A stretch of 64,000 nucleotides of DNA from Sphingobacteriaceae bacterium (GTDB lineage: Bacteria; Bacteroidota; Bacteroidia; B-17B0; Aurantibacillaceae). The notes under the pieces are model-generated. The model made no database searches. It worked only from the letters and a program-made list of their open reading frames with translations, and had not been told where the DNA came from. Positions within the stretch are counted from its first letter, which is position 1. Each line of letters opens with the position of its first letter. The stretch covers positions 2,542,001-2,606,000 of the forward strand of contig NVQB01000001.1 of NCBI GenBank assembly GCA_002319075.1. Reading direction: 5' to 3'. Made by a program: the position numbers and the translations under genes. This document shows, in pieces, positions 29,036 to 46,718 of the stretch.

Positions 29036-29053
29036 TCAGGAAAAAGATATTCT

Positions 29054-30019: not shown

Positions 30020-30039
30020 ATTATTACTGGTAAATTATT

Positions 30040-32469
30040 ATGACACATTATAAATTATTTTTGGCCTCTTTATTTTTCAGTGCTTCTTTCGGAATTCACG
30101 CACAAACGGCGGTTCCTGAACAAACAGCAACACCAGCAACCGAAACGCCAGCTGTTGCACCTGCTACAGAAACACCTGCAGCGCCGGCAACTACTGAGTT
30201 AAGCACCACTCCTGCAACAGAAACCCCTGCAGCTACTACTGAACCTGCTGCTGAGGTAGCGGCCGAACCTAAACCTAAAAAGGAGAAAAAACAAAAAGCT
30301 CCTAAATCAAGTGTGCCTGCAAGTGCAAAATCGAAAGAGAATGCCATGAAGAAAGGTAATTTATATTACAGCGAAAAATCTTACGCTGAAGCAATTCCTT
30401 TCTACGAAAAAGTTTTTAAGTCCGATAGTAGTGATAAAATGCTTTTATCAAATCTTGGCGACTGTTACCGTTTAACAAATAATACCGACGGACAATTGCT
30501 TTGTTACGGCGGTCTTGTTCGTCAAGGTAAAGCCGAACCTATTCACGAATTATATTATGGTCAGGCCCTTGTTGAAGCAGGTCAGCCCGAGCAGGCAAAA
30601 TCATATTTTGATAAGTACGCGGCAGATAGCAGAGGATTAAACCTTGCTTCTTCTTTGGCTAAGATGAAAACCTATACGCGTAATGCAGATGCTTATAGCG
30701 TTACACCCGTGGCATACAACTCCCCACAAAATGATATGTGCGCTGTATTGTTTCACGATGCTGTTGTATTTTCTTCTTCCCGCAAAAAAACTTCGTGGAT
30801 CAATAAAACACAAGGCTGGACAGATGGAAGTTACCTGAATGTATACGCTACAGAAAAAGACGAAAATGGTAAAGACATGACACCAACCATGTTTATGGGA
30901 GATTTAAATTCCAAATTCAATGATGGCCCTGTTTGTTTTAGCAGAGATTTTAATATGCTGTATTTTACCCGTAACAATGCCAGTAAAGCAGAAATGGCAA
31001 AAGACGGCACCTACAAATTAAAAATCCTCGAAGCCACTATGGATGAGAATGGCTTCAGTATGGTAAAACCGCTTCCTTTCAATAATAACGATTACAACTT
31101 TGCGCATCCGGCTATTTCAGCAGATGGGTATGTACTTTATTTTTCTTCTGATATGGAAGGCGGTAAAGGGGGTATGGATATTTACATGAGTAAAAAAGAT
31201 TCAGGTGGTGTATGGGGAACTCCGGTAAATCTTGGCGATAAAATAAATACCGCAGGAAATGAAGTGTTTCCTTTTCTTGCTGCAAATGGCGTGCTTTATT
31301 TTTCTTCTAACGGCTTAGATGGCTTAGGCGGACTGGATATCTACGAATCAAAATTACAATTTGATATGCCTACCAAAGTTTACAACATGGGCGAGCCCGT
31401 AAATAGTAAGATGGATGACTTCGGCGTATTTTTAATGGAAGATAATAAAAATGGGTATATCACTTCTAACCGTAAAGAAGGCGGTATGGACGATGATATT
31501 TATCAACTACAAATTCTTCGCGAAATTAAAAGAGGTAAGGAAGTAAAAATTATCACCAAAGATAAAGCATCGGGTGAGGCACTTGCTAATACAAAAATAG
31601 TAATCAATGGCGATACAGTTAAAACAGACGACAAAGGCGAATACATAACCATGGCGGAAGAAGATACCGAATACAAATTGGTAGCCGTAAAAGACGATTA
31701 TTTTAAAGCTGAAGATAACATGTCTAGTAAATCTTCTTTAGACGAAAGTTTTACAAAAGAATTATTGCTTGAAAAAGATCCTAAATTATTTTTACGCGCT
31801 TTAATTACCGATGCAAAAACAAAAGCTTTGTTAGAAGGTGTAACTTTAAAAGTAACAGATATCTCTACCAATACAGAGCTGGACGTTTATACAACCACCG
31901 CTGAAGGAGATTACTTTAAATTTTTATTTGCCAACCGTCTCGGAGATAAACTGACATACCTTATTCGTATTGAAAAACCGGGTTACCTGCAACGTACGGT
32001 GATCTTCACGCACACCATTGAAAAACCAGGTGAAATCAACATGAACGAAACGCTTAACTTATCTCTAGGTAAAGTAGAAGTGGGTATGGACTTAGCAAAG
32101 ATGATTGATATGAAACCTATTTATTTTGATTTAGGAAAATCAACTATCCGTAAAGACGCTGCCATTGAATTAGATAAAATTGTTCAGGTTATGAACGAGT
32201 ATCCAAACATGTCGGTTGAACTAGGTTCACATAGCGATTGCCGTGGAGCTGCTGCGCAAAATTTAAAACTTTCTGCAGCCCGTGCTAAAGCCAGTGCCGC
32301 TTACATTGTGAAGAAAGGAATCAAAAATACAAGAATCGTAGGTAAGGGTTATGGCGAATCTAAACTTCTAAATAATTGCGGTTGCGAAGGCAAAGTGGTA
32401 TCTACTTGTAGCGAAGATGAACATGCAGCAAACAGAAGAACAGAGTTTATCATTACAAAATTGAAATAG
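30040..32469 (+). CDS. PorE-like TPR-PD40-OmpA envelope protein
   Basis: An 809-residue exported protein. Signal peptide 1-22 (GIHAQ), a low-complexity Thr/Pro/Glu/Ala linker with repeated ATETPA (about 23-75) and a Lys-rich patch, TPR repeats (about 95-190), a PD40 beta-propeller (about 210-490; VLYFSSDMEGGKGGMDIY, GVLYFSSNGLDGLGGLDIY), two carboxypeptidase-regulatory-like sandwiches (about 500-660), and a C-terminal OmpA domain (about 690-809; IYFDLGKSTI, ELGSHSDCRG, LSAARAKA) with the Asp and Arg that bind peptidoglycan. A Cys-containing insert (NNCGCEGKVVSTC) sits in the OmpA domain. This is the PorE domain order; here it probably anchors the module to the cell wall. Confidence 0.92.
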   Translation: MTHYKLFLASLFFSASFGIHAQTAVPEQTATPATETPAVAPATETPAAPATTELSTTPATETPAATTEPAAEVAAEPKPKKEKKQKAPKSSVPASAKSKENAMKKGNLYYSEKSYAEAIPFYEKVFKSDSSDKMLLSNLGDCYRLTNNTDGQLLCYGGLVRQGKAEPIHELYYGQALVEAGQPEQAKSYFDKYAADSRGLNLASSLAKMKTYTRNADAYSVTPVAYNSPQNDMCAVLFHDAVVFSSSRKKTSWINKTQGWTDGSYLNVYATEKDENGKDMTPTMFMGDLNSKFNDGPVCFSRDFNMLYFTRNNASKAEMAKDGTYKLKILEATMDENGFSMVKPLPFNNNDYNFAHPAISADGYVLYFSSDMEGGKGGMDIYMSKKDSGGVWGTPVNLGDKINTAGNEVFPFLAANGVLYFSSNGLDGLGGLDIYESKLQFDMPTKVYNMGEPVNSKMDDFGVFLMEDNKNGYITSNRKEGGMDDDIYQLQILREIKRGKEVKIITKDKASGEALANTKIVINGDTVKTDDKGEYITMAEEDTEYKLVAVKDDYFKAEDNMSSKSSLDESFTKELLLEKDPKLFLRALITDAKTKALLEGVTLKVTDISTNTELDVYTTTAEGDYFKFLFANRLGDKLTYLIRIEKPGYLQRTVIFTHTIEKPGEINMNETLNLSLGKVEVGMDLAKMIDMKPIYFDLGKSTIRKDAAIELDKIVQVMNEYPNMSVELGSHSDCRGAAAQNLKLSAARAKASAAYIVKKGIKNTRIVGKGYGESKLLNNCGCEGKVVSTCSEDEHAANRRTEFIITKLK

Positions 32470-32695: not shown

Positions 32696-35600
32696 CTATT
32701 TATTCCTGATCAAGGTTATATATCCACTGTACTTTTTATTACTCTTCTTAAAAGTAAGAATGTAAAAGTAGGTAGCATCCGGTAGTATTTCTCCGCCCTG
32801 GTTCTTGCCTTCCCAGGTGCTATTGTACTGATCTGCTTCAAAAATCCGTTGATTCCATTGATCAAAGATGACCACTTTATTGTCAGGGTAGTATTGAATG
32901 TTTTTTATTCTCCATGTGTCGTTCATGCCGTTGTTGTCTGGGGTTACCACGTTATAGATAAAAATATCAAGATCGCTGTTTATTTTTACGGTCACTGTAT
33001 CTGTTCCTTTGCAGCCATGAACGTCGGTTCCTTCCACAAAATAGGTTGTGGTGGAATCGGGGTTTGCAAAAGGATTTTTCAAAATGGGATTGTTCAGGCC
33101 ACTTAATGGAAACCAATTGTAGGTAGAAGCTCCCGTGGCAGTTAAACTAATTCCCTGACCTTTATCGATGAGCGTGTCTCTGCTTGCAGTAATTTTTGGA
33201 TTGGAAAAAACTTCTACTAAAAGTGATGTAGAGTCGGTACATAAATTGGCTGAGGTTACTTTTAACCAGACTTTTTTAGAAGCCGCAGTAGTATAACTAT
33301 GTGAAGGAGAATTCTGGTCGGAGGTGGTCTCGTCTCCAAAACGCCAGGATGATGAATACGTTCCTGCCTGTAAAATACTTTGGTTGCTAAAAGTAATTGC
33401 CGTATTGAGACATGTGGCAGAGGCTGTAAATTTGGCAATAGGACCTTCATAAACATTCACAGTCTTTCTTGCTGTGTCTGTGCATCCGTTAGAGGACTTC
33501 CCAATAAGTGTTACCGTATACGTTCCGTCATTCAAATAATCGGAAGATGGATTCAATGCCGAAGAGGTAGAGTTATTGCCGAAGTCCCAAAGATAGCCGC
33601 TTATAATTCCAGTAGTTACAGTTGTAGCATTCGTAAAAGTTATCGGGAAACCATTACAGGCATTGGTAAAATTGAAATTGACTTTTGGTGCGTCGAAAAT
33701 GGTAATGGGTTTTTCGATCGTGTCATAACAATCAGAATTACTTTTTACGATTAGCGTCACCAGATAATTTCCTGGCTGCGAATACAAAGCTGAAGGGGAT
33801 TTCAGAAGACTCGTGCCTACTCCGAGGTTCCAATAATAGGATAGAGTACCACTAGGAATATTGCTAATGTTGTAATACTTCACGCTATCTGCCGTGCAAG
33901 CATTATTAACATTAAAGTCGGCATTAGGTTTAGAATATATGGCTATAGTGTTGTTAATTAGACTTACGCAACCGGAGTCTGTAAGGGCTGTGATAGTTGC
34001 TATGTATGTTCCAGAAGCTGTATAGTTGTGAGAGGTTGTGATATTTGAGCTGGAAGTTCCGTCGCCAAACGATAACAGCACAGAAACGTTAAGTGAGGTT
34101 GGAGTGATGGCAGAATTAAAATTAACCAGGTTTCCCAGGCAAGCATTATTTATAACAGAAGTAATACCGGCTTTTTCGTTCACGGTTATGGTTCCAAAAG
34201 CAGTGTCTTTGCAGTTTTGGTTGGAACTACTAATGAGACTAACGCTGTAAGTGCCTGAAACCGGATAAGTATAAGATGGTGATTGCGCTGATGAGAAATT
34301 TCCATTTCCAAAATTCCAGCTGTGACTTAAGTTGCCATTTGAAATACCGGAGGAGTTATTAAAAAAAGCTAGCGATCCTCTACAAACATTGGCAACTGTA
34401 AAAGAGCTTAGAGGTTTAGGATAAATCGTTACAAATTTGACGGTAGAATCTTTGCATCCGAAATCACTTGTTGCTTTAAGGGAAACAGAATAAGTTCCGC
34501 TGCCAGGGAAAAAATGTATAGCTGGGCTTAATGTGGAATTTGTGCTGCCATCACAGAAGTTAAAAATAAAAGTCGAAATATTACCGGAGGAAATAGTACT
34601 TGCATTTAGAAAAGTTATTTGTGTGCCATAACAGGCTGTATCACTGCTTAAAATGGCAGCCGAAGGTTGTGGATAAATTACGATGGTCTTCTTTAAAGAA
34701 TCAATGCAGCCATAAGAATTAGTGGCCGTAAGTTTTAAGGTGAAAAATCCATCAGCAGAATAAACGTGTGAGGAATGATAGTTGTTCGAGCTTCCGGAAT
34801 CACCAAAATTCCAGGCATAGGTATTACTACCTGAAGTTAAATTCGTAAAAGAAAGCAGAGAAGATTTGCACCCGTTTGCACTATTAAAAGTTACCGTAGG
34901 CACGGGATTTACATTTACACTAAAACTACTGCTAAGCGTAGCAGAACATAAACCATTTTGCACCTGTACCCTGTAAATATAGGGTGAAGGAATATTTGAA
35001 AAGGTTTGAACCATATTGGTATTAGAAATTACAGACCAGTTAGCACCAGCATCGGAAGAATATTCCCAGTGATTTACAGAACCAAGATTAGACAAAAGTT
35101 GCAGAGTGCCTGAATTTGTAGCTGCGCACACCTGCTGCGATCCCGTTATATTTCCGCCATTGCTGGCTTGATCAACGTGAACAGCAAACGCAGGTGACGT
35201 GGCGGCAGCACAATTTGCATTTTGAACACGCACACGGTACCACGTGTTTTGAGTAAGGTTAAGATAAGTTATAGATGTTGTGTTTGTGCTGGATGCAATA
35301 ATACTGTATGGTCCACCCAAAGAAGACGCGCTTTCCCATTGTTGAACAACTCCTAAATAATTTGAAAGAGAAAGCGTTGCACTGTTAGAAGTAGCACAAA
35401 CACTTTGGGTTCCACCAATGGTTCCCCCGCTGCTTGGTGAAGCGGAATTTACGGTAAGCGTATTTGTGTATACAGCCGGGCAAACACCATTTTGTATATA
35501 CGCGCGAACTTGAGTAGTGGTTGTGAGAGAAGAAAGTGTTGCAAGTGTAGTATTGCTAGAAGTGATGGTATTTGTGCTAATCCAGTTGTTTGTAGTAGAC

Positions 35601-36016
35601 TGCCAGGAAATTACGCTTCCGGTATTTCCAGCAAGTGTGGAGGTAAAAGAAGTGTTGATGCACTGTAAGGTGTTAGTTGCAATAGTTCCTGCAACTGTTT
35701 GCAAATCGCAGTTAACAAGAACAGTGTTGCTATACACAGATGGAAACCCGGTTAGTTGCACTAGCACTCGAAAATAGGAAGACTGTGTAATATTAGTATA
35801 ATTGTAGGCATTTCCGTTAAAGCCTAATATCACCCAGGGACCGGTGGAATTGTTGGAAGTTTCCCACCTGATAATAGTTCCCACATTGGCCGTCAGCGTT
35901 AATACACCCTTGTTCATGCCCTGACAAACCGTAGTGTTTGAACTCAGCGTTCCGCCGGAAGATTGTGAAGATACTTTTAGAGATGCGATCAGAATTATGA
36001 AAATAAAATACCTCAT
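32696..36016 (-). CDS. PKD-repeat surface protein with CHU_C (T9SS type B) domain
   Basis: A 1,106-residue secreted protein, last gene of the six-gene operon. Signal peptide 1-17. Residues 20-375 hold four Ig-like repeats with a recurring SGGTI and QSVCA opening. About 385-945 hold seven PKD domains, each opening with a Cys in N/TAC and carrying W-F/L-G-D/N cores such as YAWNFGDSG and YLWDFGNNS. A single Ig-like repeat (LTATGASTYNWFP) follows, then the CHU_C domain from about 1015 (NVVTPDNNGMNDTW, VVIFDQWNQRIF, DATYFYILTFKK). It starts 5 nt after the PorP/SprF-SPOR gene, its likely export partner. Confidence 0.92.
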   Translation of the reverse strand: MRYFIFIILIASLKVSSQSSGGTLSSNTTVCQGMNKGVLTLTANVGTIIRWETSNNSTGPWVILGFNGNAYNYTNITQSSYFRVLVQLTGFPSVYSNTVLVNCDLQTVAGTIATNTLQCINTSFTSTLAGNTGSVISWQSTTNNWISTNTITSSNTTLATLSSLTTTTQVRAYIQNGVCPAVYTNTLTVNSASPSSGGTIGGTQSVCATSNSATLSLSNYLGVVQQWESASSLGGPYSIIASSTNTTSITYLNLTQNTWYRVRVQNANCAAATSPAFAVHVDQASNGGNITGSQQVCAATNSGTLQLLSNLGSVNHWEYSSDAGANWSVISNTNMVQTFSNIPSPYIYRVQVQNGLCSATLSSSFSVNVNPVPTVTFNSANGCKSSLLSFTNLTSGSNTYAWNFGDSGSSNNYHSSHVYSADGFFTLKLTATNSYGCIDSLKKTIVIYPQPSAAILSSDTACYGTQITFLNASTISSGNISTFIFNFCDGSTNSTLSPAIHFFPGSGTYSVSLKATSDFGCKDSTVKFVTIYPKPLSSFTVANVCRGSLAFFNNSSGISNGNLSHSWNFGNGNFSSAQSPSYTYPVSGTYSVSLISSSNQNCKDTAFGTITVNEKAGITSVINNACLGNLVNFNSAITPTSLNVSVLLSFGDGTSSSNITTSHNYTASGTYIATITALTDSGCVSLINNTIAIYSKPNADFNVNNACTADSVKYYNISNIPSGTLSYYWNLGVGTSLLKSPSALYSQPGNYLVTLIVKSNSDCYDTIEKPITIFDAPKVNFNFTNACNGFPITFTNATTVTTGIISGYLWDFGNNSTSSALNPSSDYLNDGTYTVTLIGKSSNGCTDTARKTVNVYEGPIAKFTASATCLNTAITFSNQSILQAGTYSSSWRFGDETTSDQNSPSHSYTTAASKKVWLKVTSANLCTDSTSLLVEVFSNPKITASRDTLIDKGQGISLTATGASTYNWFPLSGLNNPILKNPFANPDSTTTYFVEGTDVHGCKGTDTVTVKINSDLDIFIYNVVTPDNNGMNDTWRIKNIQYYPDNKVVIFDQWNQRIFEADQYNSTWEGKNQGGEILPDATYFYILTFKKSNKKYSGYITLIRNK

Positions 36017-36021
36017 GTAAA

Positions 36022-37515
36022 TTAGTTTAAAGTTTGAAGGATCCAGGCTTCTCCTTTTGTTATTTCAATAGTTTTGGATTTTATTGTTTTTCGAACTGAT
36101 TTAAGTGCGTTTAAACCATCGCTTAACTTAGTGTACTCTACTACCGTGCATACATAAATATAGTTTTTCGGATGCCCGGGAAGTTGTACAAGCTTAGTAT
36201 CCAAATCCAATTCTCGCTTTATAAATTTTTGGAAGTCTTTTGAGTAGCCCGAATTTTGATATACACCCAACACGATTTTATAGTTAGCGTTCTCTGATTC
36301 TTTAAACGACTCAAAATCATTGCCTGTCTTAGCACGTATGACTTTGTATTTTGCAGCAGATTTTTTTCCGGTAGCATCCTCAGGGCTTTCTTTTTTACTG
36401 AGATAAGTTTCAATGGCCTTATTCAAATCTTCTTCGCTAACTTGTTGGTTTTTTAATAAATCTATTTCTGATTTTAAAGCGGCAAGTTTTTTGTCTAATG
36501 AATCTGTTTTTTTGGATACGGTTTCAATTTGCTGATCATGTTTATCAAGACGTTCCAATATTTCGTCGAGCTTACTTTGGCTTAGGGTTTCGGTCTTAGT
36601 TTTCGATGGCCTGTTAGAAAGATTAAAAGTGATACCTAGTTCGTGGCCTCCTTTTGTATGATTCTGGATTCCAAGGCTGTATTCGTAACTGTACATAATT
36701 CTTAACTTTTCATTGATACTGAATCCTAATGTGGCATAGGCGGCATAGTAATTGCGGTACCCCAAAGCGAAAAGAAATTTGTTTTTATAATCAAGTGTAT
36801 TCACAAAATCAAACTGAACCGGTAATCCCTGAGGTGTTCTTAAAATTAATTGGGGAATATAAAACCAGGTTGCGGGCTTTAGGATAAAGGTGTTTTGCAA
36901 AGCAAGAATAAACTGAGAAACAGATTTGTATTGGAGTTCTTTATTGAAGACGGGTTCTTTGTAGATATAGTTTTGTTGCAGCAGTTGTTTAGCCGCAAGG
37001 CTCACTAGTAATTTTTTAAATGAATATACCAATCCGAATGCAGCATCAGGAATAGTAACGGCTTGCTGCGATGGCCATTGGGAAAACTCTGCAGGCGCAT
37101 CTGCTTTCATTTTTGAGAAGTCACTATTCAGCCTTTGGAATCCAGCCGAGATACCAAAAAAAAGTGCGCTTTCTTTATTCAAATTTATTCGATAGCGAAA
37201 AGCACCGGATAGATAAGTCTTAGAAAAGATACCGGCTTTTTCGTTAATGATATTTAAACCTAGTCCGGCCTTATTTTTAGAAGTGGCGCCATCAATCGTG
37301 AGTTGAAGAATTTCAGGACTCTCTGTAATTCCCAACCAATTTTTTTTATAGTGACAATGCGCTGTGGCGTCCGCATTTAAACCAATTGCTGCTGGATTAA
37401 GCGCAAAAGGATTATAGGCCGACTGATTTAGTAAAATGGTTTGCTGCGCTGAACTGCATTTGAAGCAGACGATGCCAACCAAAACAAAAAACGGTTTTTT
37501 AAATTCAGATAGCAT
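36022..37515 (-). CDS. PorP/SprF-family protein fused to coiled coil and SPOR-like tail
   Basis: A 497-residue protein, about 170 longer than ordinary PorP/SprF. Signal peptide 1-23 (KCSSAQ). The PorP/SprF barrel covers about 24-305 (LNQSAYNPFALNPAAIGL, AGLGLNIINEKAGI, RIMYSYEYSLG). Then comes a heptad-rich coiled coil (about 315-370; KLDEILERLDKHDQQIETV, DSLDKKLAALKSEIDLL), a Lys/Glu linker, and a C-terminal domain (about 410-497) with SPOR-like pattern: YKIVLGVYQNSGYSKDF, NYIYVCTVVEYTKLSDGLNAL. SPOR domains bind peptidoglycan stripped of stem peptides; this assignment is by pattern only. It likely exports the flanking CHU_C protein. Confidence 0.85.
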   Translation of the reverse strand: MLSEFKKPFFVLVGIVCFKCSSAQQTILLNQSAYNPFALNPAAIGLNADATAHCHYKKNWLGITESPEILQLTIDGATSKNKAGLGLNIINEKAGIFSKTYLSGAFRYRINLNKESALFFGISAGFQRLNSDFSKMKADAPAEFSQWPSQQAVTIPDAAFGLVYSFKKLLVSLAAKQLLQQNYIYKEPVFNKELQYKSVSQFILALQNTFILKPATWFYIPQLILRTPQGLPVQFDFVNTLDYKNKFLFALGYRNYYAAYATLGFSINEKLRIMYSYEYSLGIQNHTKGGHELGITFNLSNRPSKTKTETLSQSKLDEILERLDKHDQQIETVSKKTDSLDKKLAALKSEIDLLKNQQVSEEDLNKAIETYLSKKESPEDATGKKSAAKYKVIRAKTGNDFESFKESENANYKIVLGVYQNSGYSKDFQKFIKRELDLDTKLVQLPGHPKNYIYVCTVVEYTKLSDGLNALKSVRKTIKSKTIEITKGEAWILQTLN

Positions 37516-37517
37516 TT

Positions 37518-40500
37518 TTAATTTGTTTTGATGAATTTGAGAGTTTTATTAATGTCTCCTTTTAGACTATGACTTTGGAAATGTAAAAAGTAAAGACCGT
37601 TTTTGAATTCGCAGGTGTTTATCACTGAAAAATTTGTAATGGAATTTTCGGCACTGTTCTCTAAGAGTAGTTTTCCTGTGAGATCATAAACTTTCATTTC
37701 GATGTTTGCATAATCATTTAGTTCAAAAGAAATGTTCAAGTAGCTATTTGAAGGATTTGGAAAAGCCATGAGGGAAAGGAGTTCCAGCTTGCGGACGGGT
37801 CTTTGAATTTGAATCGGTGATTGTTTAAACAAAACACTTAGTTGTTTAGTTATTTTATCGCTGCAAAAACCATTACTTACTTCAAGTGTCACGCTAAAGT
37901 CCTGTGGAAGAACATAGGTGTGAACAGGACTTAAGTCTGTACTTGTGAGGCCGTCACCAAAAGTCCACAGTTGATGGATGGGTGTTGGATTACTGAGGTT
38001 GACAAACTTCACCGGTTTGTTTATGGTATCAAGAGTCGATGCTAGAAACGATGCTTGAATTGTATTGCTAGTAGAAATAATTAAAACGGAATCGCTGGCA
38101 CTACATCCAGAGGCACTTACATTTGCCCAATACATGCCGGGCTTAGTGATTATCAGTGAAGGGCTAGTGGCAGACAAACCTAAAGAAGACCCCCAGGTTA
38201 TAACCCCTGTATTAGTGAGTTGCAGGTCTACGGTATTAGTTCCGCAGAGATACCGTATGTCATTGCCGAGTTCAACTATTGGAGCACCTATGAGCGTTAC
38301 AGAAATATAGTCAGACGAAGAGCAGCCGTTAGTGCTTGTAACTGATACGCCATAGACACCGCTGCTTGTAACGGCAATGGTTTGGGTGGTTTGTGAACTA
38401 AGCCAACTATAAGATGAGCCAGTATTTCCAGCGTCTAAAGAGAAACTCAGATTATTACACAAAGTCGTGTCGTTGCCTAGTGAAACTGTCATCAGCGTAT
38501 GAATAGTAACAGTTATTGAATCGTTTTGCGAACAGGCGTTGGTTGTATTTGTTACCGTGATCCAGTATAGTCCGCTACTGGTAAGATTTATGATTTGATT
38601 TGCAGAGCCATTGCTCCATGAATAAGAACAGCCAAAGTTTTGCGCATCTAATAAAGTTGTTCCGCAGGCAGATTTGTCTGGGCCCAATTCTATCTGCGGT
38701 GTGTTTAAGAAATTAATTTGAATTGTATCTCTCGCTTTGCATCCATTGGTGGCTGATGCTTCCAGCCAATAGCTTCCGCCTGATGAGATTGTAATGATTG
38801 ATGTCGTTAAGCCAGTACTCCATAAAAAGCTGGAAGCATTTGAATTTGCAGATAGACTAAAACCATATTTTGGTTTGCAAATTTGCACGTTATTGCCAAG
38901 ATTCACGGTCGGTGGTGCATTTAATACAATAGCAATGCTATCAGTTCCTACGCAACCATTCTGGTCCGTTACCTGAACACTATATATACCGCTTGAACTT
39001 GCGAGAACAGTTTGAGTTGTAGCGCCTGTGTTCCATGCATAAGAACTTCCGGCATAACCCGCATTCAAAACAAGGGCGCCACAGACAGTTGTATCATTTC
39101 CAAGATCGGGATTTACCAAAGCATTTAGTGTAACCATCACGGTTTCGGTGCTGACACAATTATCTGTGTTGGTAACAGTCACGTTATAAAATCCGCTTGT
39201 CAGAACTTGCAGTGTTTGAGTGGTAAGATTTCCAGGTAGCCAAAAAAAAGTAGCGCCCGAGTTATTTGCGTTAAGTGTGTAAGAACTGCCGCATGTAGTT
39301 ATATTGCCGCCCAGTGAAATTTGCGGAGCTGGAACTATGGAAGTAACAAGGGCTGATGTGTCGCTACAACCCCAGGTATTAAAAGCAATAAGCTGTGTGG
39401 TATAAGTTCCGGTGGAGGGATAGGTATAATTTTGACTATGGGCACTTGTTGTAGTGGTCACAACAGTGTTTCCATAATTCCAGATATAATAGAGATTTTG
39501 GCCAGATGAAGTAGACACAAAGTTTGACGCTGATCCAAAACACGCATTACTAACCTGGTACTGTGCCGTAGGCTGCGGTCGAGCTATAACAGGTAAAGTG
39601 AAACTATTCACGCAGCCGGAATCTGATTGTGCACTTAAGGTAATCGTGTAAATTCCTGCACTTGTATAATTTACTACTGCATTTGTACCTGAAAAGGATG
39701 AGTTGCCAAAATTCCAGCTATACGACAAGATATTTCCTGAACTAAGAGTGGAGGTATTTGTGAGGTAAATAAAGTTATTGATGCAGACACTCGTGTTCGT
39801 AGTAACGAATGAAGTAGCCGGTTTAGGATGAATGTATACGTATGAACTTGTAGAGTCGGGACAGCCCTGTGGATTTGTCACCTTAAGTTTAACGGTATAA
39901 AGACCAGAACTTGTGTAAACCTTTTTTGGTACAGCTAACGTAGACTGAGTTGCATCTCCGAAAGACCAGGTGTAACTGCAGCTGCCAGTGTTGCAGGCAG
40001 AAGTGTTTGCGAAATAAACTGTATCATTTAAACAGGAATTGTTTTTTGTGAAGTGAGTTTGGTTGGCAGGAAAGATTACAATGGCCTTAACAACAGAATC
40101 TTTGCAGCCAAAGCTTGTAGTTGCTAAAAGTTTAACGGTGTAAGATCCGCTTGCCGAATATGTTTGTGAGGGAGAATTTAAAGTACTTGTATTTAATGGC
40201 CCCTGACCCAACCACCAAAAAGAACCCGAAATAGCCATTGATGTATGATTACTCACCGAAATGTTTGAAAAGGATACAAGTCCGCTTGAACAATTTAAGC
40301 TCTGCGTAAAAGCAGGAGTAGGCAGAGGATAAACAATAACATTTGTAGAAGATGACGTTGCGGAACATCCAAAATTGGACGTAGCTGTTAATTGAAAACT
40401 GTATAAGCCCGAAGCATTAAATTTCTTTCTGAATAATTTTTGAGGGGTAGAGCTGGCGCTACCATCACTAAATAACCAAGAGTTTGTGGTGGTGCCTGAG

Positions 40501-41855
40501 ATTATTTTAACAGTATCCTTTATCGTTATAGAATCACCGATGCAGGAATTCAAATGATTGAGGTATGTAATTTGTGGATAAGGCGCTTGCGGCGCAATAA
40601 CTATACTATCTTTTGTTTCACAACCGCTGGCGTCCATTAAAGTGACCACGAACTTTTGATAGCCGTTTGTTGGATTCACCGTGTGAGTTTGGGTATATAA
40701 AACGGGACTTGTATTCCATTGCCATCTTAGAGTTGTGTTTTGTATGGAAGAATTATTTCCGGCATCTAAAGTAGCCGTTGTTCCGGCGCAGATATGAAGT
40801 GTGTCAAGCGTCAAAGCAGACACCGGAGGGTTAGGACAATCAGGATCTGCAACAGTGATTCGGAACGCTTTCCCAAGGATATTGATGTGCGGATGATTCA
40901 GGTCAGATAGATTTGCACTCATCCCTCCATTGTTTACCGGGCCAATCGGAGTTACTAAAGTGTTTTGAATTGTGGAAAAAAGAGGCGACCAATTTTGGTC
41001 CTGATTTAAAGAGACAAAAAGTCTAAGTTGCTGTAAGTGAAAATAGGATGCTGGAAAATAACTTGTGTCATTTGCTAAATAATTGACAGTGATGGTATTG
41101 TTTACAAGCGAATGGCCCGGCGAATAGATGTCAAAATACCTTTGTATACTGCCTTTACCTGCATTTACCTGAGGTAAAAAGCCTCTGTAAACACTGAAAG
41201 GAGAGCTAATATTTACAGGTCCGGATATTGAAATTCCCATGTTGGCAGCAAGAGCATTTACTGAAGTATTATAAATGGATTTGTAAATAACCAGCCCGGT
41301 ATCGGTAATGGAGTTTGCAAAAAACTGGGACCCATTCCTTTCATTTTTTATAAAAGGATGATTAATTACTGAGGGTGCGCCAACGGGATCTATGAGATTC
41401 CATTTAAACCCGTTCATTAATACCAGGCCCGTTTTAAAATTTAAAGTGTCTGAACAATTTATATTGGTGCTTAGGGTTAACACTCCGGAGCCTTTATCCA
41501 GCTCTACTTCCCAAAACTTTGGTTCAACGTTTCCTCCAATAACAGCAAATGCTCCAAAAGGATTTGTTAGCGAATTTGTGAAAATGATCCTGGCCTTTTT
41601 TGCGTTGCCTGGTCCTGGAGCTGCTGTAAATTTTAGAAGGTCGTTATTAATAAGACTTCCGGACAGATACAGTGGACCATTAAAACGCACATATTTAGTT
41701 GGATCACATTTTAGGTTTTGGAAATCGCCATCCACGCTTATAAAAGATGTAGAATCTACACGCAAGGAAGCATCCGATCCATTAATGAATAAACCTCTCT
41801 GTCCCCAGGCAGAACCATGAATTACTAAAAGAAGATATATCAGAAATCTTTTCAA
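37518..41855 (-). CDS. large PKD/Ig-repeat protein with T9SS type A tail
   Basis: A 1,445-residue secreted protein. Signal peptide ends near 19 (GSAWGQ). Residues 20-340 are beta-rich, with a first part like Bacteroidota surface proteins (LFINGSDASLRVDS). PKD domains occupy about 430-870 (five; TYTWSFGDAT, SYSWNFGNS), then six Ig-like repeats opening with LGNDTTVC-type motifs (about 875-1300), and one further PKD (HQLWTFGDGL). The final 90 residues are a type A sorting domain (LMAFPNPSNSYLNISFEL, GLYFLHFQ). It carries many paired Cys, so disulfides are likely. It shares the operon with a CHU_C cargo, so both sorting types come from one transcript. Confidence 0.92.
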   Translation of the reverse strand: MKRFLIYLLLVIHGSAWGQRGLFINGSDASLRVDSTSFISVDGDFQNLKCDPTKYVRFNGPLYLSGSLINNDLLKFTAAPGPGNAKKARIIFTNSLTNPFGAFAVIGGNVEPKFWEVELDKGSGVLTLSTNINCSDTLNFKTGLVLMNGFKWNLIDPVGAPSVINHPFIKNERNGSQFFANSITDTGLVIYKSIYNTSVNALAANMGISISGPVNISSPFSVYRGFLPQVNAGKGSIQRYFDIYSPGHSLVNNTITVNYLANDTSYFPASYFHLQQLRLFVSLNQDQNWSPLFSTIQNTLVTPIGPVNNGGMSANLSDLNHPHINILGKAFRITVADPDCPNPPVSALTLDTLHICAGTTATLDAGNNSSIQNTTLRWQWNTSPVLYTQTHTVNPTNGYQKFVVTLMDASGCETKDSIVIAPQAPYPQITYLNHLNSCIGDSITIKDTVKIISGTTTNSWLFSDGSASSTPQKLFRKKFNASGLYSFQLTATSNFGCSATSSSTNVIVYPLPTPAFTQSLNCSSGLVSFSNISVSNHTSMAISGSFWWLGQGPLNTSTLNSPSQTYSASGSYTVKLLATTSFGCKDSVVKAIVIFPANQTHFTKNNSCLNDTVYFANTSACNTGSCSYTWSFGDATQSTLAVPKKVYTSSGLYTVKLKVTNPQGCPDSTSSYVYIHPKPATSFVTTNTSVCINNFIYLTNTSTLSSGNILSYSWNFGNSSFSGTNAVVNYTSAGIYTITLSAQSDSGCVNSFTLPVIARPQPTAQYQVSNACFGSASNFVSTSSGQNLYYIWNYGNTVVTTTTSAHSQNYTYPSTGTYTTQLIAFNTWGCSDTSALVTSIVPAPQISLGGNITTCGSSYTLNANNSGATFFWLPGNLTTQTLQVLTSGFYNVTVTNTDNCVSTETVMVTLNALVNPDLGNDTTVCGALVLNAGYAGSSYAWNTGATTQTVLASSSGIYSVQVTDQNGCVGTDSIAIVLNAPPTVNLGNNVQICKPKYGFSLSANSNASSFLWSTGLTTSIITISSGGSYWLEASATNGCKARDTIQINFLNTPQIELGPDKSACGTTLLDAQNFGCSYSWSNGSANQIINLTSSGLYWITVTNTTNACSQNDSITVTIHTLMTVSLGNDTTLCNNLSFSLDAGNTGSSYSWLSSQTTQTIAVTSSGVYGVSVTSTNGCSSSDYISVTLIGAPIVELGNDIRYLCGTNTVDLQLTNTGVITWGSSLGLSATSPSLIITKPGMYWANVSASGCSASDSVLIISTSNTIQASFLASTLDTINKPVKFVNLSNPTPIHQLWTFGDGLTSTDLSPVHTYVLPQDFSVTLEVSNGFCSDKITKQLSVLFKQSPIQIQRPVRKLELLSLMAFPNPSNSYLNISFELNDYANIEMKVYDLTGKLLLENSAENSITNFSVINTCEFKNGLYFLHFQSHSLKGDINKTLKFIKTN

Positions 41856-41860
41856 ATTTT

Positions 41861-42985
41861 TTAGGGAAGTTTTATGATGTAAGCCAGCACATAATAGGGT
41901 GGTCGATTTTCGTGCATAGTATTGTTTAGACCAGAGCTGGTACCATCCCCTGAATTTCCACCCAGCGTATGATTGTGAGATTTTATATTTACGATGCTAT
42001 TCGAAATAGCACCTCCACCGCCATTCGCAAGGGGACCTCCACTCTGAAACCCTGAAATATCGTCCTGAATAGAAGTGTTAGTTATACTTGACGTACTTCC
42101 ATCCGTTCCATTTTGAAGAGCATGCTGGTGTTTGGGTAATTCCGCGATGACTAAAGTATGACCATTTTCACCGCCAGTATTTCCTATTGTTCCGTAGTTG
42201 ATTACTGTTCCAGTATTGGGCGCTACGGCAGGCGTTGTGCCCGCCCGACCATAAACCAAATGTTGCCCTCCAGCGTTTGTGGTGCCTGCAAAATTGTCTA
42301 CCCCTACAATAAATCTACCTCTAAGATCAGGAGTCAGTAATCCATTATAGGTTCCGCCATCACAAAGACCCCATCCAAGCGGTACTACAGTCCCACTCCA
42401 CATAACAATAATTCCTGTAGGAACTAATGCATTTGAAGCAAAGCCCGGAATACTTAGCGTGCCTGTGATATTTGCATTTCCAGTCACATTGATATTTCCA
42501 CCTGCGCTTATGTTTCCGGATACGGTTGTATTCCCAATGACATCCAATGCTTGAGAAGGATTTTGTTTGTTGATTCCCATGGAAAAGGTAGTTGAAACGG
42601 CTGGTGTTGTTATTATACCGGAAGGACTTGTTGAAGACCCACCCGCAGCTAGTGCTAATGGGCTCATGGATATCCATTTGCTCTGAGATCCATGATAATA
42701 ATAGTGCATGTGATGGTCTTTATCGTATACTACTAATCCATCGGCAGCTGTATTTGTGCCTGAGCTTATGCTAACTCTTTGTACTGTTGTCATAGTGGGA
42801 GTTAGCAATCCTTTAGCCATGCCTGCAGGAGATTCAATCTGCATGGCTGCCGAAGAATGTGGTGTGAGAATATTGACGCCGACCTGCGCGTAGTTCTTAG
42901 TTAACATAAAAAAAAAGAGGACAAGCAAAATGTGTTCGCCCCTTTTTCTTTTCTTATTTTTTGGGTAAGTAGCTTCCATTATCAT
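41861..42985 (-). CDS. exported phage-tail-collar-domain protein
   Basis: A 374-residue protein with a Sec signal (RRGEHILLVLFFFMLTKNYAQ-like, after a basic start) and a beta/Gly-rich N-terminal half with repeated NVTGNANITGTLSI strands, like trimeric fibre stems. Residues 185-240 match the phage tail Collar domain: PTGIIVMWSG, PLGWGLCDGG, TPDLRGRFIVGVDNF. The C-terminal part has His-rich loops (ELPKHQHALQ, SHNHTLGG) and the typical ending ENRPPYYVLAYIIK. No other phage gene is nearby. The gene begins directly after the preceding stop (TAGATG); the Met two codons later is also possible. Confidence 0.88.
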   Translation of the reverse strand: MIMEATYPKNKKRKRGEHILLVLFFFMLTKNYAQVGVNILTPHSSAAMQIESPAGMAKGLLTPTMTTVQRVSISSGTNTAADGLVVYDKDHHMHYYYHGSQSKWISMSPLALAAGGSSTSPSGIITTPAVSTTFSMGINKQNPSQALDVIGNTTVSGNISAGGNINVTGNANITGTLSIPGFASNALVPTGIIVMWSGTVVPLGWGLCDGGTYNGLLTPDLRGRFIVGVDNFAGTTNAGGQHLVYGRAGTTPAVAPNTGTVINYGTIGNTGGENGHTLVIAELPKHQHALQNGTDGSTSSITNTSIQDDISGFQSGGPLANGGGGAISNSIVNIKSHNHTLGGNSGDGTSSGLNNTMHENRPPYYVLAYIIKLP

Positions 42986-44986
42986 CTATTTTATAAAAAG
43001 TGTAATTTTTTCGGATTTAAAAACGTCGCCGTTGCGGTTATAAACTCTCAGTTGGTAGGTGTAATTTTTACCTAACTCTATGTCTTTGTCAGAATGAGAC
43101 ATTTCATCGAGCAGCCCTGTAACTGCAGACATTCCAGTTTCTCCTGTTTTAAGTTTGTAAATAACAGAACCTTTCACATGTGCTTCGTTCCTGAGTTTCC
43201 ATTTAATAATAACTTGTTTCTGTCGTACACTATAATTCACTTTGAAATCGGAAATGCGTAATTGATCATCGTCTTCTTCTAATCTTAACTTGAATTTAAG
43301 ATGATTGGAATTTTTGGATTTGTTGCCGGAACTATCCTGAGCTTCGATGTAATATTCATAGACACCGGTATCTTCTGCATTTCGGTCTGTAAAACGAAAA
43401 ATTACTCTGTCTAAAAGCTTCGCATTTAATTTTTTGTAAGAAGAGGATGAGTCGTTGAGATATTTTCTATAAATAGAATAACCGGCAAGATCAGGTTCGG
43501 CATTCGGAATCCATTCAACGATAATTTGTTTCTTCTCATTAAGAGAAACTGTTTTTAAAAAAGGCAGACCCGGTGAAGTAACGTCCGGCATGCTGGCAAT
43601 TGCGAAATCGGAATAGGCGCTACGGTTTAAACTTTTATCTACTGCCACAACTTTGTAAAGAAATTTGTTTTTAATTTTTTTGGCTAAAACATCGGTATAA
43701 GTATTTGAACTAAGTGGATCGGGAGTAATCTTCACGTAAGTATCCTCCGTATTTATATTTATGGTCCTGTAAACAAGATATCCTTTCAAATCTTTCTCCT
43801 GGTTCTTATTCCAATTTAAAACGATTCGACCCGAATCAGATTCTATGGTGAGGTTTTCTGGTTTTTGCGGAGGTTCATTGTCATATACTTCTATGTGAAA
43901 AGGATTGGATACAGTTTCGTTACTGTCTCTGTCTATACAAGAGACTGCGTACATGTATGAACCGAATTGCTGCACATGATCTATAAAGACAGAGTCTTCT
44001 AGGGCTACCGGTTGTTTGTTGAGCTTAATAAAGTCTGTATCGTTTTGTGTTGTTCGATAAATGTTAAAACCAAGAAGATCTTCCTCTTTATTTTTCTTTT
44101 TCCATTTGATAAAAACATTTTTACCATCCAAAGAATTGTAAATGCTGTCAGGTGACTTTGGCGGGTCGAGATCTTTCAGAAAAACAATTATAGGTTTGGA
44201 TAAAATAGATGCACTTCCAAAAAAGTCGATGGCTTGTAATTGATAATAATATTTAGTGTGAGGTTTTAATTTTCCATCTACAAAAAATTCTTCGCCGTAA
44301 ACCTCTTCATTGTTTTTATTTTTTATTTTGGAAAGAATGATTGGCTCTTTTGTTATTTGACGAAAGGTGCCTGTATCATTGATCTTTCGATATACGTTAA
44401 CACCGAAATAGGCGTCAGGTTCGGGCGTCCATTTAAAAGAAACTTTTTTGTTCCCGGTTTTTGTGATGACGTTTTGAGGAGCATCAATAGGCACATATTT
44501 ATCTGTTTTCAGCTTTTTAGAGATGCCAATTTCCGTTTCTCCGGAAGCAGTGTGAGAAGTTACTTTGTATTCATATTCTTTTCCTTTTATTGCCGTTATG
44601 TCGTCGTAACGTATACCCAGATAGTTAGAAAAGGCATCGCTTTTAAATGATTTTACAAGTACAGCCAATAAAGCCAGATCTTTTATATTCGCTTGAGATG
44701 CGGCGAGTTCCAGGTAACTTTTAAGTTCTTTGTCTTGTCGCAATTCTTCTTCTGAAACTTCGTAAGATTTGTACAAGACAGGTTGAGCATTTATTTTGTC
44801 CCAGTTTGTCGCTGTAATTTCCTTACGGTAAATAGTATATCCCATGCTATTTATTATCGAAGGACAGTACCATTTTATCTGCACCACGTTTTGGTTGTTC
44901 GGACTAACGCGGCACAGCACGGTATTTTGACTCCAGGTTTGGAAACAAACAAAAATCAAAACGGCGTGTATCACTAATCTCTTCAT
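42986..44986 (-). CDS. exported fibronectin type III repeat protein
   Basis: A 666-residue protein with signal peptide 1-19 (QTWSQ). It is built from about six fibronectin type III-like sandwiches; recurring marks are FKWTPEPDAYFGVNVYRK, IKWKKKNKEEDLLGFNIYR, LNWNKNQEKDLKGYLVYR and VEWIPNAEPDLAGYSIYRK, each followed by YYYxLxAxD-type strands. Residues 85-130 form an unusual helical insert in the first repeat (EEELRQDKELKSYLELAAS). There is no T9SS tail, so it probably stays in the periplasm or at the inner face of the outer membrane. One base separates it from the upstream gene. Function unknown; a scaffold for assembly is an inference. Confidence 0.83.
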   Translation of the reverse strand: MKRLVIHAVLIFVCFQTWSQNTVLCRVSPNNQNVVQIKWYCPSIINSMGYTIYRKEITATNWDKINAQPVLYKSYEVSEEELRQDKELKSYLELAASQANIKDLALLAVLVKSFKSDAFSNYLGIRYDDITAIKGKEYEYKVTSHTASGETEIGISKKLKTDKYVPIDAPQNVITKTGNKKVSFKWTPEPDAYFGVNVYRKINDTGTFRQITKEPIILSKIKNKNNEEVYGEEFFVDGKLKPHTKYYYQLQAIDFFGSASILSKPIIVFLKDLDPPKSPDSIYNSLDGKNVFIKWKKKNKEEDLLGFNIYRTTQNDTDFIKLNKQPVALEDSVFIDHVQQFGSYMYAVSCIDRDSNETVSNPFHIEVYDNEPPQKPENLTIESDSGRIVLNWNKNQEKDLKGYLVYRTININTEDTYVKITPDPLSSNTYTDVLAKKIKNKFLYKVVAVDKSLNRSAYSDFAIASMPDVTSPGLPFLKTVSLNEKKQIIVEWIPNAEPDLAGYSIYRKYLNDSSSSYKKLNAKLLDRVIFRFTDRNAEDTGVYEYYIEAQDSSGNKSKNSNHLKFKLRLEEDDDQLRISDFKVNYSVRQKQVIIKWKLRNEAHVKGSVIYKLKTGETGMSAVTGLLDEMSHSDKDIELGKNYTYQLRVYNRNGDVFKSEKITLFIK

Positions 44987-44987
44987 T

Positions 44988-46718
44988 TTACTTTGCCCTT
45001 TTTTTTAACGTGACACCAAAATTATAGACGTAAGAAAGTGAAGCCCTCATCTCACTGAATTGTTGAGCAGTTTGTTTTACCGCGTTTTTTTTGAGGTAAG
45101 AGTAATTTGCTTTTAAGGATTGACATTTATCGAGAGTAAAACTAAAATTGAAGGCATAGGTTTGATTTTTGTTTAAGATCTCGCCATCGATAAAGGTATT
45201 TTGGAAACCTGCATTTAGCTGGAGACGGATTTTGTTTTTGAATAAAGATTTTTGAATTCCGAAATTCGGACCATACCCTTCATTCACTCCCTGACCTTGG
45301 CTTGTTGCTTTATTGTATAGTCCTGCTACTGTTAAACCGAAACCCAAGTCAATTAAATTGGCCGTATAAGAGAACGTTTCGTTAAAAAAAGTAGTAAGGC
45401 CCTGCTTATTTCCACCGGATTCCTGGTAGGTAGCGCTGTTGCTTAAAGTGTGTTTAATTTTCTTTTTACCAAAAGCATAACTTGCATTTAATCCTTCGTT
45501 TTGCGTTAGCTGAACGAATTTTATGGAGTCTGTAAAAACATCTCTTACAGGTAGGGTATTTGAACTAAAATTAGAATAGTTTGCACTAAGATTGAGATTG
45601 GAAGTAATATTGCAGGAAACGTTCAGAGAACCAATGATTCTTTGTGAAGTCATCACCTGAATTTTATCAAGGTTGTTCTTTTGAACTCCCGAAGCTGCGC
45701 TGATGGAGATCTTGTTTTTTAATAGACTAAAATTTGTATTCAATGAGAATTCTTCAATGTCATTGGTAAGAAAAATAGCACCAAGTGTTTTGTAATCTGG
45801 ATCAATACGTTTGTATTTAAATCCTAGAAGGTATTTACCAGGTGTAAAATCAATACCGGCGGTTATGGCTTTATCGTAATGTGAAGATGTGCGTGGTGAA
45901 TAGATTTGATTAATGTAAGTGAACCGCTCTATTTTGTATAGTTCGTCGAAAAGATTTTTTGTATAAAGGCTGTAGGCCAGATGTCCATTAACACTAATAA
46001 ATTTGGTTATTTTTTGTTTGGTCCCTAACGCAAAGATCTGGTTTTCCTGTGGCGTAACGTTTAGAGACGTATCGAAGGCTAAAGAATGGATATTGTCTTG
46101 TATTTTTAAGAAGATAAATTCTCCATAATTATTTTCGGAACCTACTTTTATTTTTCCACCGCCACCCCAGCGCTCGTAAGCAGGCATACTCACAACAATT
46201 CCGTCTACGCCCCCTTTTGGAATAGCTTTCTCGAAACGCCCGTAAAAACCCGCACCACTCACCAAATATTTTTTAGGTTTAACTTCCAACCCTCCTCCTA
46301 AAAACATAGCACCTGACAAAGTGTATTCTGAAAATTCAAGAGATCTGAATCCAGCGTGAACAGTAATCCAGCGGTACTGAGGGCTGATTCCGAATTGATT
46401 GAACGGTTGACTAAACTTATCCAAACCTGACGAGTAATTTTTGTCCTGCTGGGTTATTACGGCGGTAAAAGGCACATTTACCTTATTAAAAAGTGTGAGA
46501 TTAAGATTTGCATTTAGGGTCCAGTAAAAAGGATCGCGGCGTGGCGCAATGCCATCGGCTTTGTAAAAAACCATATTTGCCGCTATAGAACCAGTGACAG
46601 ATAATGGAACTTCATTGGGAATGTTTTTTACATTTCGCAATGTCTGTTCCACATCCTGAGCAAAACCTTTATTGAGTATCATAAAGAGTGAAATCGGTAT
46701 TGTAATTCTATAAATCAA
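44988..46718 (-). CDS. predicted outer-membrane beta-barrel, first gene of the six-gene operon
   Basis: A 576-residue protein with a signal peptide ending at GFAQ. The mature part is almost wholly amphipathic beta strands alternating with short turns (FISVNGHLAYSLYTK, KYLLGFKYKRIDPDY, LNLSANYSNFSSNTL), ending in SLSYVYNFGVTLKKRAK; an outer-membrane barrel is the simplest reading. It matches no named porin I recognise and lacks a TonB plug. The start codon is TTG; the next Met would cut the signal peptide in half. A TAATTTAG box (46724-46731) ends 5 nt before the TTG. It could anchor or export the products of the five genes that follow. Confidence 0.75.
   Translation of the reverse strand: MIYRITIPISLFMILNKGFAQDVEQTLRNVKNIPNEVPLSVTGSIAANMVFYKADGIAPRRDPFYWTLNANLNLTLFNKVNVPFTAVITQQDKNYSSGLDKFSQPFNQFGISPQYRWITVHAGFRSLEFSEYTLSGAMFLGGGLEVKPKKYLVSGAGFYGRFEKAIPKGGVDGIVVSMPAYERWGGGGKIKVGSENNYGEFIFLKIQDNIHSLAFDTSLNVTPQENQIFALGTKQKITKFISVNGHLAYSLYTKNLFDELYKIERFTYINQIYSPRTSSHYDKAITAGIDFTPGKYLLGFKYKRIDPDYKTLGAIFLTNDIEEFSLNTNFSLLKNKISISAASGVQKNNLDKIQVMTSQRIIGSLNVSCNITSNLNLSANYSNFSSNTLPVRDVFTDSIKFVQLTQNEGLNASYAFGKKKIKHTLSNSATYQESGGNKQGLTTFFNETFSYTANLIDLGFGLTVAGLYNKATSQGQGVNEGYGPNFGIQKSLFKNKIRLQLNAGFQNTFIDGEILNKNQTYAFNFSFTLDKCQSLKANYSYLKKNAVKQTAQQFSEMRASLSYVYNFGVTLKKRAK

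What the first reader, a model, noticed from the sequence alone, without database searches (positions are those of the whole stretch)
32696..46718. Six-gene, gap-free operon that looks like a self-contained T9SS surface-assembly unit
Seen: six minus-strand genes separated by 0-5 bases encode, in order, a predicted outer-membrane barrel, a fibronectin III protein, a collar-domain fibre-like protein, a 1,445-residue PKD/Ig protein with a type A sorting tail, a PorP/SprF protein with a wall-binding-like tail, and a PKD protein with CHU_C. Known: PorP/SprF proteins help T9SS export CHU_C cargo. Inference: the operon makes and anchors one multi-part surface structure, with the cargo exported by both T9SS sorting types. 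I know of no described system with this gene set.
Basis: partly seen in the sequence, partly recalled or inferred. Interest (0 to 1): 0.7.

Follow-up and report, generated by a model that had tools for sequence, protein, structure and literature searches.

The report
Outer-membrane machinery of a toxin system
Six tightly packed genes that look like a surface structure are best read as half of a bacterial weapon system whose toxin half lies elsewhere in the same chromosome, and they point to an unnamed outer-membrane pore protein that accompanies this class of toxins.

Summary
Observation confirmed: six minus-strand genes, gaps of 1, 0, 5, 2 and 5 bases, domains as named. "Self-contained" is wrong. 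The no-family barrel occurs in 108 of 395 Bacteroidota genomes; 89 of these also carry TANFOR (found in 100 of 395), the N-terminal part of a published polymorphic-toxin class (PMC7073777). Of 112 stronger barrel matches, 87 have TANFOR within 10 kb, all same-strand. Six genomes fuse TANFOR and barrel in one ORF. G244 has the window's order with TANFOR inserted. The window's genome has one TANFOR gene, 194 kb away, followed by toxin-like and immunity-like genes. Best reading: the operon makes the outer-membrane and surface part of a TANFOR toxin system: wide barrel, FN3 partner, fibre, two T9SS adhesins, and PorP with a SPOR-like wall-binding tail. Against it: two relatives keep TANFOR without an intact set, and one has the set with no TANFOR found. 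New variant of a known kind; I found no mention of the barrel in the papers searched.

The parts
44988..46718 (-). Gene 1: outer-membrane barrel, 26 strands in the model, no separate plug domain seen; no Pfam/NCBIfam family. Usual partner of TANFOR proteins
42986..44986 (-). Gene 2: fibronectin III protein, the FN3 partner often seen beside the barrel in TANFOR loci
44225..44485 (-). best Pfam fn3 stretch in gene 2
   Evidence: residues 168-254
41861..42985 (-). Gene 3: fibre-like protein with signal-like N-terminus and phage tail Collar domain
42323..42415 (-). Collar domain stretch in gene 3
   Evidence: residues 191-221
37518..41855 (-). Gene 4: 1445-aa PKD/Ig adhesin-like protein with T9SS type A sorting tail
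37566..37763 (-). Por_Secre_tail (type A) in gene 4
   Evidence: residues 1365-1430
36022..37515 (-). Gene 5: PorP/SprF barrel followed by a coiled-coil-like stretch and a SPOR-like tail
36022..36348 (-). SPOR-like tail of gene 5
32696..36016 (-). Gene 6: PKD protein with T9SS type B (CHU_C) sorting tail, presumed cargo of gene 5
32711..32962 (-). CHU_C type B sorting domain in gene 6
   Evidence: residues 1019-1102

Best explanation
The operon makes the outer-membrane and surface part of a TANFOR-class polymorphic-toxin system. Core: the 26-strand barrel and the FN3 protein, which across Bacteroidota go with a TANFOR protein; I infer that the barrel is the outer-membrane port or dock for the TANFOR protein and its toxin. 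Accessories: the type A and type B PKD proteins are exported by T9SS as surface adhesins or filaments; the PorP-SPOR protein collects the type B one and pins it to the cell wall (PorP and PorE jobs in one chain); the collar protein forms a fibre tip that may touch the target cell. The toxin half lies 194 kb away: TANFOR protein (1722 aa), 1127-aa toxin-like protein, 131-aa immunity-like protein, then repeated TNT-like toxin tails with small immunity-like genes. Shown: gene set, conservation, co-occurrence, adjacency, fusions, correlated divergence. Inferred: physical complex, export route, wall pinning, target-cell role, toxicity.
For: 395 Bacteroidota genomes: barrel in 108, TANFOR in 100, both in 89; with bit cut-offs chosen afterwards (60/45) 86 barrel genomes, all 86 among 90 TANFOR genomes. 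112 barrel matches of at least 60 bits: 87 have TANFOR within 10 kb, all same strand, 68 within 1.5 kb. TANFOR and barrel in one ORF in six genomes (L142; L177-L181). Barrel and TANFOR distances over 32 chosen loci: Mantel r 0.93, 0 of 5000 permutations; the two loci of G011 and the two of G244 go separate ways in both trees. NCBI's own TIGR02542, independent of my alignment: 10 of its 11 genomes in the family have the barrel, against 30 of 87 overall. FN3 partner near the barrel in 24 of 39 loci. G244 has barrel-TANFOR-FN3-collar-1880-aa SprB-repeat/type A protein. G046 has the six genes plus a 1640-aa toxin-like gene, a 231-aa gene and TANFOR in one cluster. Own genome: one barrel, one TANFOR, toxin-like cassette. 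TANFOR open frames of 1689-1744 aa in 6 of 87 family genomes; all 6 have a window-type barrel or a piece of one ('window-type' is my grouping, by tree or by 57-72% identity). In both trees G000, G065, G046 and G037 form one clade, support 1.000.
Against: In this genome the toxin genes are not linked to the operon. G003 (one contig, 100% complete) and G031 keep TANFOR but have only a piece of the barrel (in G031 at a contig end) and no strong match to genes 2 to 5. G017 has all six genes, over two contigs, and no TANFOR found (91% complete, 630 contigs, 6% contamination). In the family the match is looser than in the phylum: 24 of 30 barrel genomes have a strong TANFOR, and 6 of 30 strong-TANFOR genomes have no barrel. 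The full set is in only 4 of 87 family genomes, with a fifth partial. Inside the shared clade the two trees branch differently: G000 with G037 for TANFOR (0.999), with G065 and G046 for the barrel (0.955). My TANFOR profile A2 was built from barrel neighbourhoods. TIGR02542 does not reach its cut-off in any of the 87 genomes and misses the window genome's copy. PorP and CHU_C were found beside 0 of 39 phylum barrels, so their part is specific to the window type. No toxin domain in the own-genome cassette passes a curated cut-off. No experiment shows export.
Confidence: 0.66

Rival explanations
1. A six-part adhesin or filament in its own right: barrel and FN3 are old TANFOR-locus parts that were recruited here for anchoring T9SS adhesins and a fibre, and no longer serve the distant toxin genes.
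For: The toxin genes are 194 kb away; two T9SS cargoes, a PorP shuttle and a fibre dominate the operon; G017 has the set with no TANFOR found.
Against: The window genome keeps exactly one barrel and one TANFOR, and both fall in the same clade of their trees; G046 keeps everything in one cluster; G003 and G031, which kept TANFOR, still carry pieces of the barrel.
Confidence: 0.2
2. The barrel is not an exporter but a surface anchor or docking site: TANFOR proteins leave through T9SS, as their discoverers proposed, and then bind the barrel/FN3 complex. (This is a version of the best explanation, not an alternative to the toxin link.)
For: T9SS substrates are enriched near TANFOR genes and over 95% of TANFOR genomes have T9SS (PMC7073777); TANFOR is also fused to the barrel in six genomes, as expected of a docking domain.
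Against: No T9SS sorting tail was detected on the window genome's TANFOR protein or its toxin-like neighbour; the barrel model is wide, with MtrB and pilus ushers among its best structure matches, proteins that, from recall, enclose or pass other proteins.
Confidence: 0.3
3. Chance clustering of common Bacteroidota surface genes.
For: PKD, Fn3, PorP and CHU_C proteins are common in the phylum (recalled).
Against: The set occurs in five genomes (the window's, L031, L034, L032, L033), two of them in a second arrangement; the gene-4 N-terminus and the PorP tail were found only in family genomes that have the set or part of it; barrel-TANFOR co-occurrence is far beyond chance.
Confidence: 0.02

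Closest known systems
TANFOR polymorphic toxins of Bacteroidetes (Jana, Salomon, Bosis 2020, PMC7073777; parts 1-3 of 6 and a term search read)
   Same: TANFOR protein with a separate downstream toxin-like gene and immunity-like gene; Fn3, PKD, SprB-repeat and type A T9SS proteins as companions
   Different: Here the toxin genes are unlinked from the surface genes; the barrel, collar fibre, PorP-SPOR and type B protein are not named in that paper's main text as searched (barrel 0, collar 0, sprf 0); the TANFOR copies in this family are below NCBI's cut-off
T9SS type B cargo with PorP/SprF shuttle and PorE-like wall anchor (PMC9143113, abstract and discussion read; PMC12618676, abstract and passages read)
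   Same: CHU_C cargo beside a PorP/SprF gene; wall anchoring proposed
   Different: The presumed wall-binding part is a SPOR-like tail fused to PorP rather than a separate OmpA-type PorE protein; the window's other cluster (20351-32469) has the usual three-gene form
MtrB (6r2q_B) and pilus ushers PapC/FimD
   Same: Wide outer-membrane barrel (MtrB Z 18.9, rmsd 6.3, 452 residues; PapC Z 14.3, rmsd 5.7, 372 residues)
   Different: 12% identity or less; shared fold only; many unrelated barrels such as AlgE (Z 17.0) score alike

Membership tests
TANFOR polymorphic-toxin class (genome level) | protein with N-terminal TANFOR domain in the genome | tested here: met
   G000:C1:2782320-2783234, E 2.1e-87 with alignment A2; not found by TIGR02542 itself
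TANFOR polymorphic-toxin class (genome level) | C-terminal or adjacent toxin domain with immunity gene | tested here: inconclusive
   1127-aa neighbour shares about its last 230 residues with a toxin-like gene in TANFOR locus L041 (109.8 bits); TNT at 24.7 bits in a short gene, below cut-off 27; immunity by position only
TANFOR polymorphic-toxin class (genome level) | T9SS in the genome (over 95% of TANFOR genomes in the paper) | not tested
   core T9SS genes were not searched; two PorP genes and type A/B cargo are in the window
Linked TANFOR locus as in the 2020 paper | TANFOR gene in or beside the operon | tested here: not met
   it lies 194 kb away; so the operon is not itself a linked TANFOR locus. 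Linked in G046
Linked TANFOR locus as in the 2020 paper | Fn3 and T9SS-tail genes beside the TANFOR gene (enriched, not required) | tested here: not met
   my FN3, type A and CHU_C profiles found none in the 36 kb around the own-genome TANFOR gene (L163, L164); PKD was not searched there. They are in the distant operon
T9SS type B cargo/shuttle pair | CHU_C cargo next to a PorP/SprF gene | tested here: met
T9SS type B cargo/shuttle pair | shuttle needed for export of its cargo | not testable with these tools
   experiment needed
SPOR domain (gene 5 tail) | Pfam SPOR above cut-off | tested here: inconclusive
   window and L032 tails no SPOR hit; L034 tail 20.9 (cut-off 21), L033 tail 12.2
SPOR domain (gene 5 tail) | SPOR fold | tested here: inconclusive
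   RlpA Z 6.8, CwlC 6.8, DedD 6.7, DamX 5.6, next match 4.5, and a 520-residue Burkholderia protein of unstated fold first at 9.4; best Foldseek E 2.3e-03, to CwlC; favours SPOR, but Z under 8 can be a common arrangement
Chaperone-usher or contractile injection system | dedicated chaperone, or sheath/tube/baseplate genes | not tested
   none was named among the 11 window proteins scanned, but the rest of the window was not scanned

The most novel reading that the evidence does not exclude
The unnamed 26-strand barrel, with its FN3 partner, is the dedicated outer-membrane translocon of TANFOR toxins: a secretion route of its own, distinct from the T9SS channel, carried by about a quarter of the Bacteroidota genomes sampled; and the window shows a form in which it is merged with a T9SS-built adhesin and fibre platform that aims the toxin at target cells.
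Probability: 0.3. Interest if true: 0.85.

Novelty: new variant of a known kind. Interest (0 to 1): 0.62.

Why it matters
How TANFOR toxins leave the cell was left open by their discoverers, who suggested T9SS. A widespread barrel that co-occurs with them, usually sits next to them, and is sometimes fused to their TANFOR domain gives that question a gene to delete. It also explains a recurring set of unnamed Bacteroidota surface genes, and suggests a PorP with a built-in wall anchor.

Tried and rejected
The single-protein scan of genome contigs found only 5 loci and spent that scan; an alignment would probably have reached further. TIGR02542 as a TANFOR detector was too weak in this family (11 of 87 genomes, 0 over cut-off), so I first noted that the window genome had no TANFOR hit; the custom alignment changed this. 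The gene-5 tail profile against PDB sequences gave no SPOR match. NCBIfam named nothing in the toxin genes scanned. Pfam named none of eight diverse barrels above cut-off. Considered and dropped: phage remnant (among the six, only the collar protein resembles phage proteins strongly; gene 2 has a weak minor-tail match of 25 bits), contractile injection system, chance clustering. Paper searches: 0 papers; TANFOR: 3 papers, one relevant; 196 papers, 20 listed, listing only; 4 papers; 4 papers; 1 paper. Supplements could not be read, so the barrel may be in the 2020 paper's supplementary tables. The library holds only open-licence PMC papers.

Choices that could flatter the result: the bit cut-offs 60/45 were set after seeing the tables (uncut counts are given too). 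The 40 phylum loci were picked by me, about half from the top scores; 39 of 40 were counted (L133 gave no barrel ORF of 60 bits). The 32 loci were those I chose in which both genes could be paired. A2 rows all come from barrel neighbourhoods. The Fisher values ignore shared ancestry. The match list was cut by the tool ('more matches are not listed'); I left out its TANFOR rows below 46 bits from the distance count, left out second rows that looked like the same gene, and for the uncut genome count added a hand list of 13 handles, 3 of them already present. The six fusions were sought where both matches had the same open frame length.
Full report
The six genes are real and as described. One search gives six minus-strand ORFs of 576, 666, 374, 1445, 497 and 1106 residues with gaps of 1, 0, 5, 2 and 5 bases; searches give the domains: none for gene 1, fn3, Collar (just over its cut-off), PKD with a type A tail, PorP/SprF, PKD with CHU_C. 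The first protein models as an outer-membrane barrel of 26 strands (pLDDT 79); its best structure match is MtrB (Z 18.9, 452 residues, rmsd 6.3), with AlgE at 17.0 and the usher PapC at 14.3. The tail of gene 5 models as a SPOR-like fold (RlpA, CwlC, DedD and DamX SPOR domains at Z 5.6-6.8, the next match at 4.5, and a long Burkholderia protein first at 9.4; best Foldseek E 2.3e-03). One relative's tail scores 20.9 bits against Pfam SPOR (cut-off 21) and the window's own gave no hit.

The set is a conserved unit but the order is not fixed. The same order occurs in L031 (with L187 for the end of the operon) and in L034; in L032/L037 and L033/L038/L170 the genes sit together as two divergent blocks, gene 4 and collar on one strand and PorP, CHU_C protein, barrel and FN3 on the other. 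In the window's family of 87 genomes the gene-4 N-terminal part is in 5, the PorP tail in 4 of them, and a strong collar match in the same 5. G037 is the fifth; its contig ends inside gene 4. A sixth named record, L035, holds only the start of the barrel at a contig end.

The barrel leads elsewhere. With an alignment of 25 sequences it is found in 108 of 395 Bacteroidota genomes. I fetched 40 of these loci and scanned them with my own profiles: of 39 countable loci, 30 have TANFOR, 24 the FN3 partner and 18 a P978 region (my name for a 978-aa family that is also the rear part of many long TANFOR proteins) within five ORFs on the same strand, while collar is near 2 and PorP or CHU_C near none. 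TANFOR is the N-terminal part of a published class of polymorphic toxins (PMC7073777, parts 1-3 of 6 read); that paper reports Fn3, PKD, SprB repeats and type A tails enriched near TANFOR genes, suggests export by T9SS, and has no word beginning with barrel, collar or SprF in its main text.

The link between barrel and TANFOR was tested several ways. In the 395 genomes TANFOR (alignment A2) is in 100, the barrel in 108, both in 89; with cut-offs chosen afterwards, 86 barrel genomes are all among 90 TANFOR genomes. Of 112 barrel matches of 60 bits or more, 87 have TANFOR within 10 kb, each on the same strand. Six genomes carry TANFOR and barrel in one ORF (L142; L177, L178, L179, L180, L181). 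Distances between barrels and between TANFOR domains correlate over 32 loci (Mantel r 0.926, 0 of 5000 permutations); this partly reflects species descent, but the two loci of G011 and the two of G244 part company in both trees. Because A2 was built from barrel neighbourhoods, NCBI's TIGR02542 is the fairer check: 10 of its 11 genomes in the family have the barrel, against 30 of 87. Within the family the match is good but not complete: 24 of 30 barrel genomes and 24 of 30 strong-TANFOR genomes.

The window's genome has the missing half. TIGR02542 misses it, but A2 finds one TANFOR protein at 2782320-2783234, 194 kb from the operon (2574696-2588718), in a gene of 1722 residues. One base after it comes a 1127-aa gene whose last 230 or so residues match a toxin-like gene in TANFOR locus L041 (109.8 bits), then a 131-aa gene, then short genes of 193, 198 and 119 residues that resemble each other and the end of the 912-aa gene near the TANFOR gene of G003; one scores 24.7 bits against TNT (cut-off 27). 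Between them lie small genes in the position of immunity genes. This is the usual look of a polymorphic-toxin locus with spare toxin tails (recalled), though no domain passes a curated cut-off. TANFOR open frames of 1689-1744 residues are found in 6 of 87 family genomes, and all six have a window-type barrel or a piece of one. In both trees the window's genome falls with G065, G046 and G037 (support 1.000 in each), though the branching inside that clade differs. In G046 the whole system is together: PorP, CHU_C protein, barrel, FN3, a 1640-aa gene ending in a nuclease-like stretch (my reading; no Pfam hit), a 231-aa gene and the TANFOR gene. In G244, from another family, the order is barrel, TANFOR, FN3, collar and an 1880-aa protein with SprB repeats (13 stretches) and a type A tail: the window's first four genes with TANFOR inserted.

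Results against this reading: G003, a single-contig genome, and G031 keep TANFOR but only a piece of the barrel (261 residues in G003; a contig-end piece in G031) and no strong match to genes 2 to 5; gene 6 was not searched there. G017 has all six genes and no TANFOR found, perhaps because it is fragmented. So the halves can be lost or separated. PorP-SPOR and the CHU_C protein were seen only with the window-type set, and their link to toxin delivery is by gene order alone.

Most likely mechanism, with steps marked. Shown by sequence: a wide barrel and an FN3 protein that go with TANFOR proteins. Inferred: the barrel is the port or dock of the TANFOR protein. From published work on relatives: type A cargo is linked to LPS, type B cargo is held by its PorP-like protein, and non-moving type B proteins are postulated to be pinned to the wall through PorP-PorE (PMC9143113, abstract and discussion read; PMC12618676, abstract and passages). 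Inferred: here a SPOR-like tail does the wall pinning in one chain, so that the adhesin platform is static. Inferred: the collar fibre recognises a target. The window also holds the ordinary three-gene form next door, a 2894-aa CHU_C protein, PorP and an OmpA-type PorE-like protein at 20351-32469, which shows by contrast what is unusual in the operon.

Verdict: a new variant of a known kind, the TANFOR polymorphic-toxin system, with its surface half in one operon and its toxin half elsewhere. The general result, that an unnamed outer-membrane barrel is the regular partner of TANFOR proteins in the phylum, is the part worth following. I saw it in no paper listed or read, within an open-licence library, mostly from listings, and without supplements.

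Noticed in passing
window 20351-32469 (+): Ordinary T9SS three-gene cluster: 2894-aa CHU_C protein, PorP/SprF, and TPR/PD40/OmpA protein like PorE, convergent with the operon.
   Followed up: partly
window 47688-48323 (+): LuxR-type response regulator upstream of and divergent from the operon; a possible regulator, not tested.
   Followed up: no
L163:4137-10766 (own genome, near 2.77 Mb): Run of repeated TNT-like toxin-tail genes with small immunity-like genes between them, after the TANFOR and toxin-like genes.
   Followed up: partly
L142, L177-L181: Natural fusions of a TANFOR domain with the barrel in one ORF; one search lists further TANFOR matches outside the fusion in five of the six genomes (not G302).
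   Followed up: partly
L114:8785-11244 and similar loci: In several genomes of one family (f5) the barrel's open frame is about 820 aa, with an extra region of unknown kind.
   Followed up: no
L054:9770-13651 and L033:13709-18631: By eye both hold an HExxH metalloprotease-like stretch; one search finds the same region of the 1640-aa gene in TANFOR open frames of six family genomes.
   Followed up: no
G000:C1:3205603-3205740: Small broken copy of the FN3 partner (63% identity over 47 residues, stops inside) elsewhere in the window's genome.
   Followed up: no
L184, L185, L186 (G053, G010, G004): P978 and FN3 genes form a pair away from barrel and TANFOR, so the parts of this system are scattered in several family genomes.
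   Followed up: no
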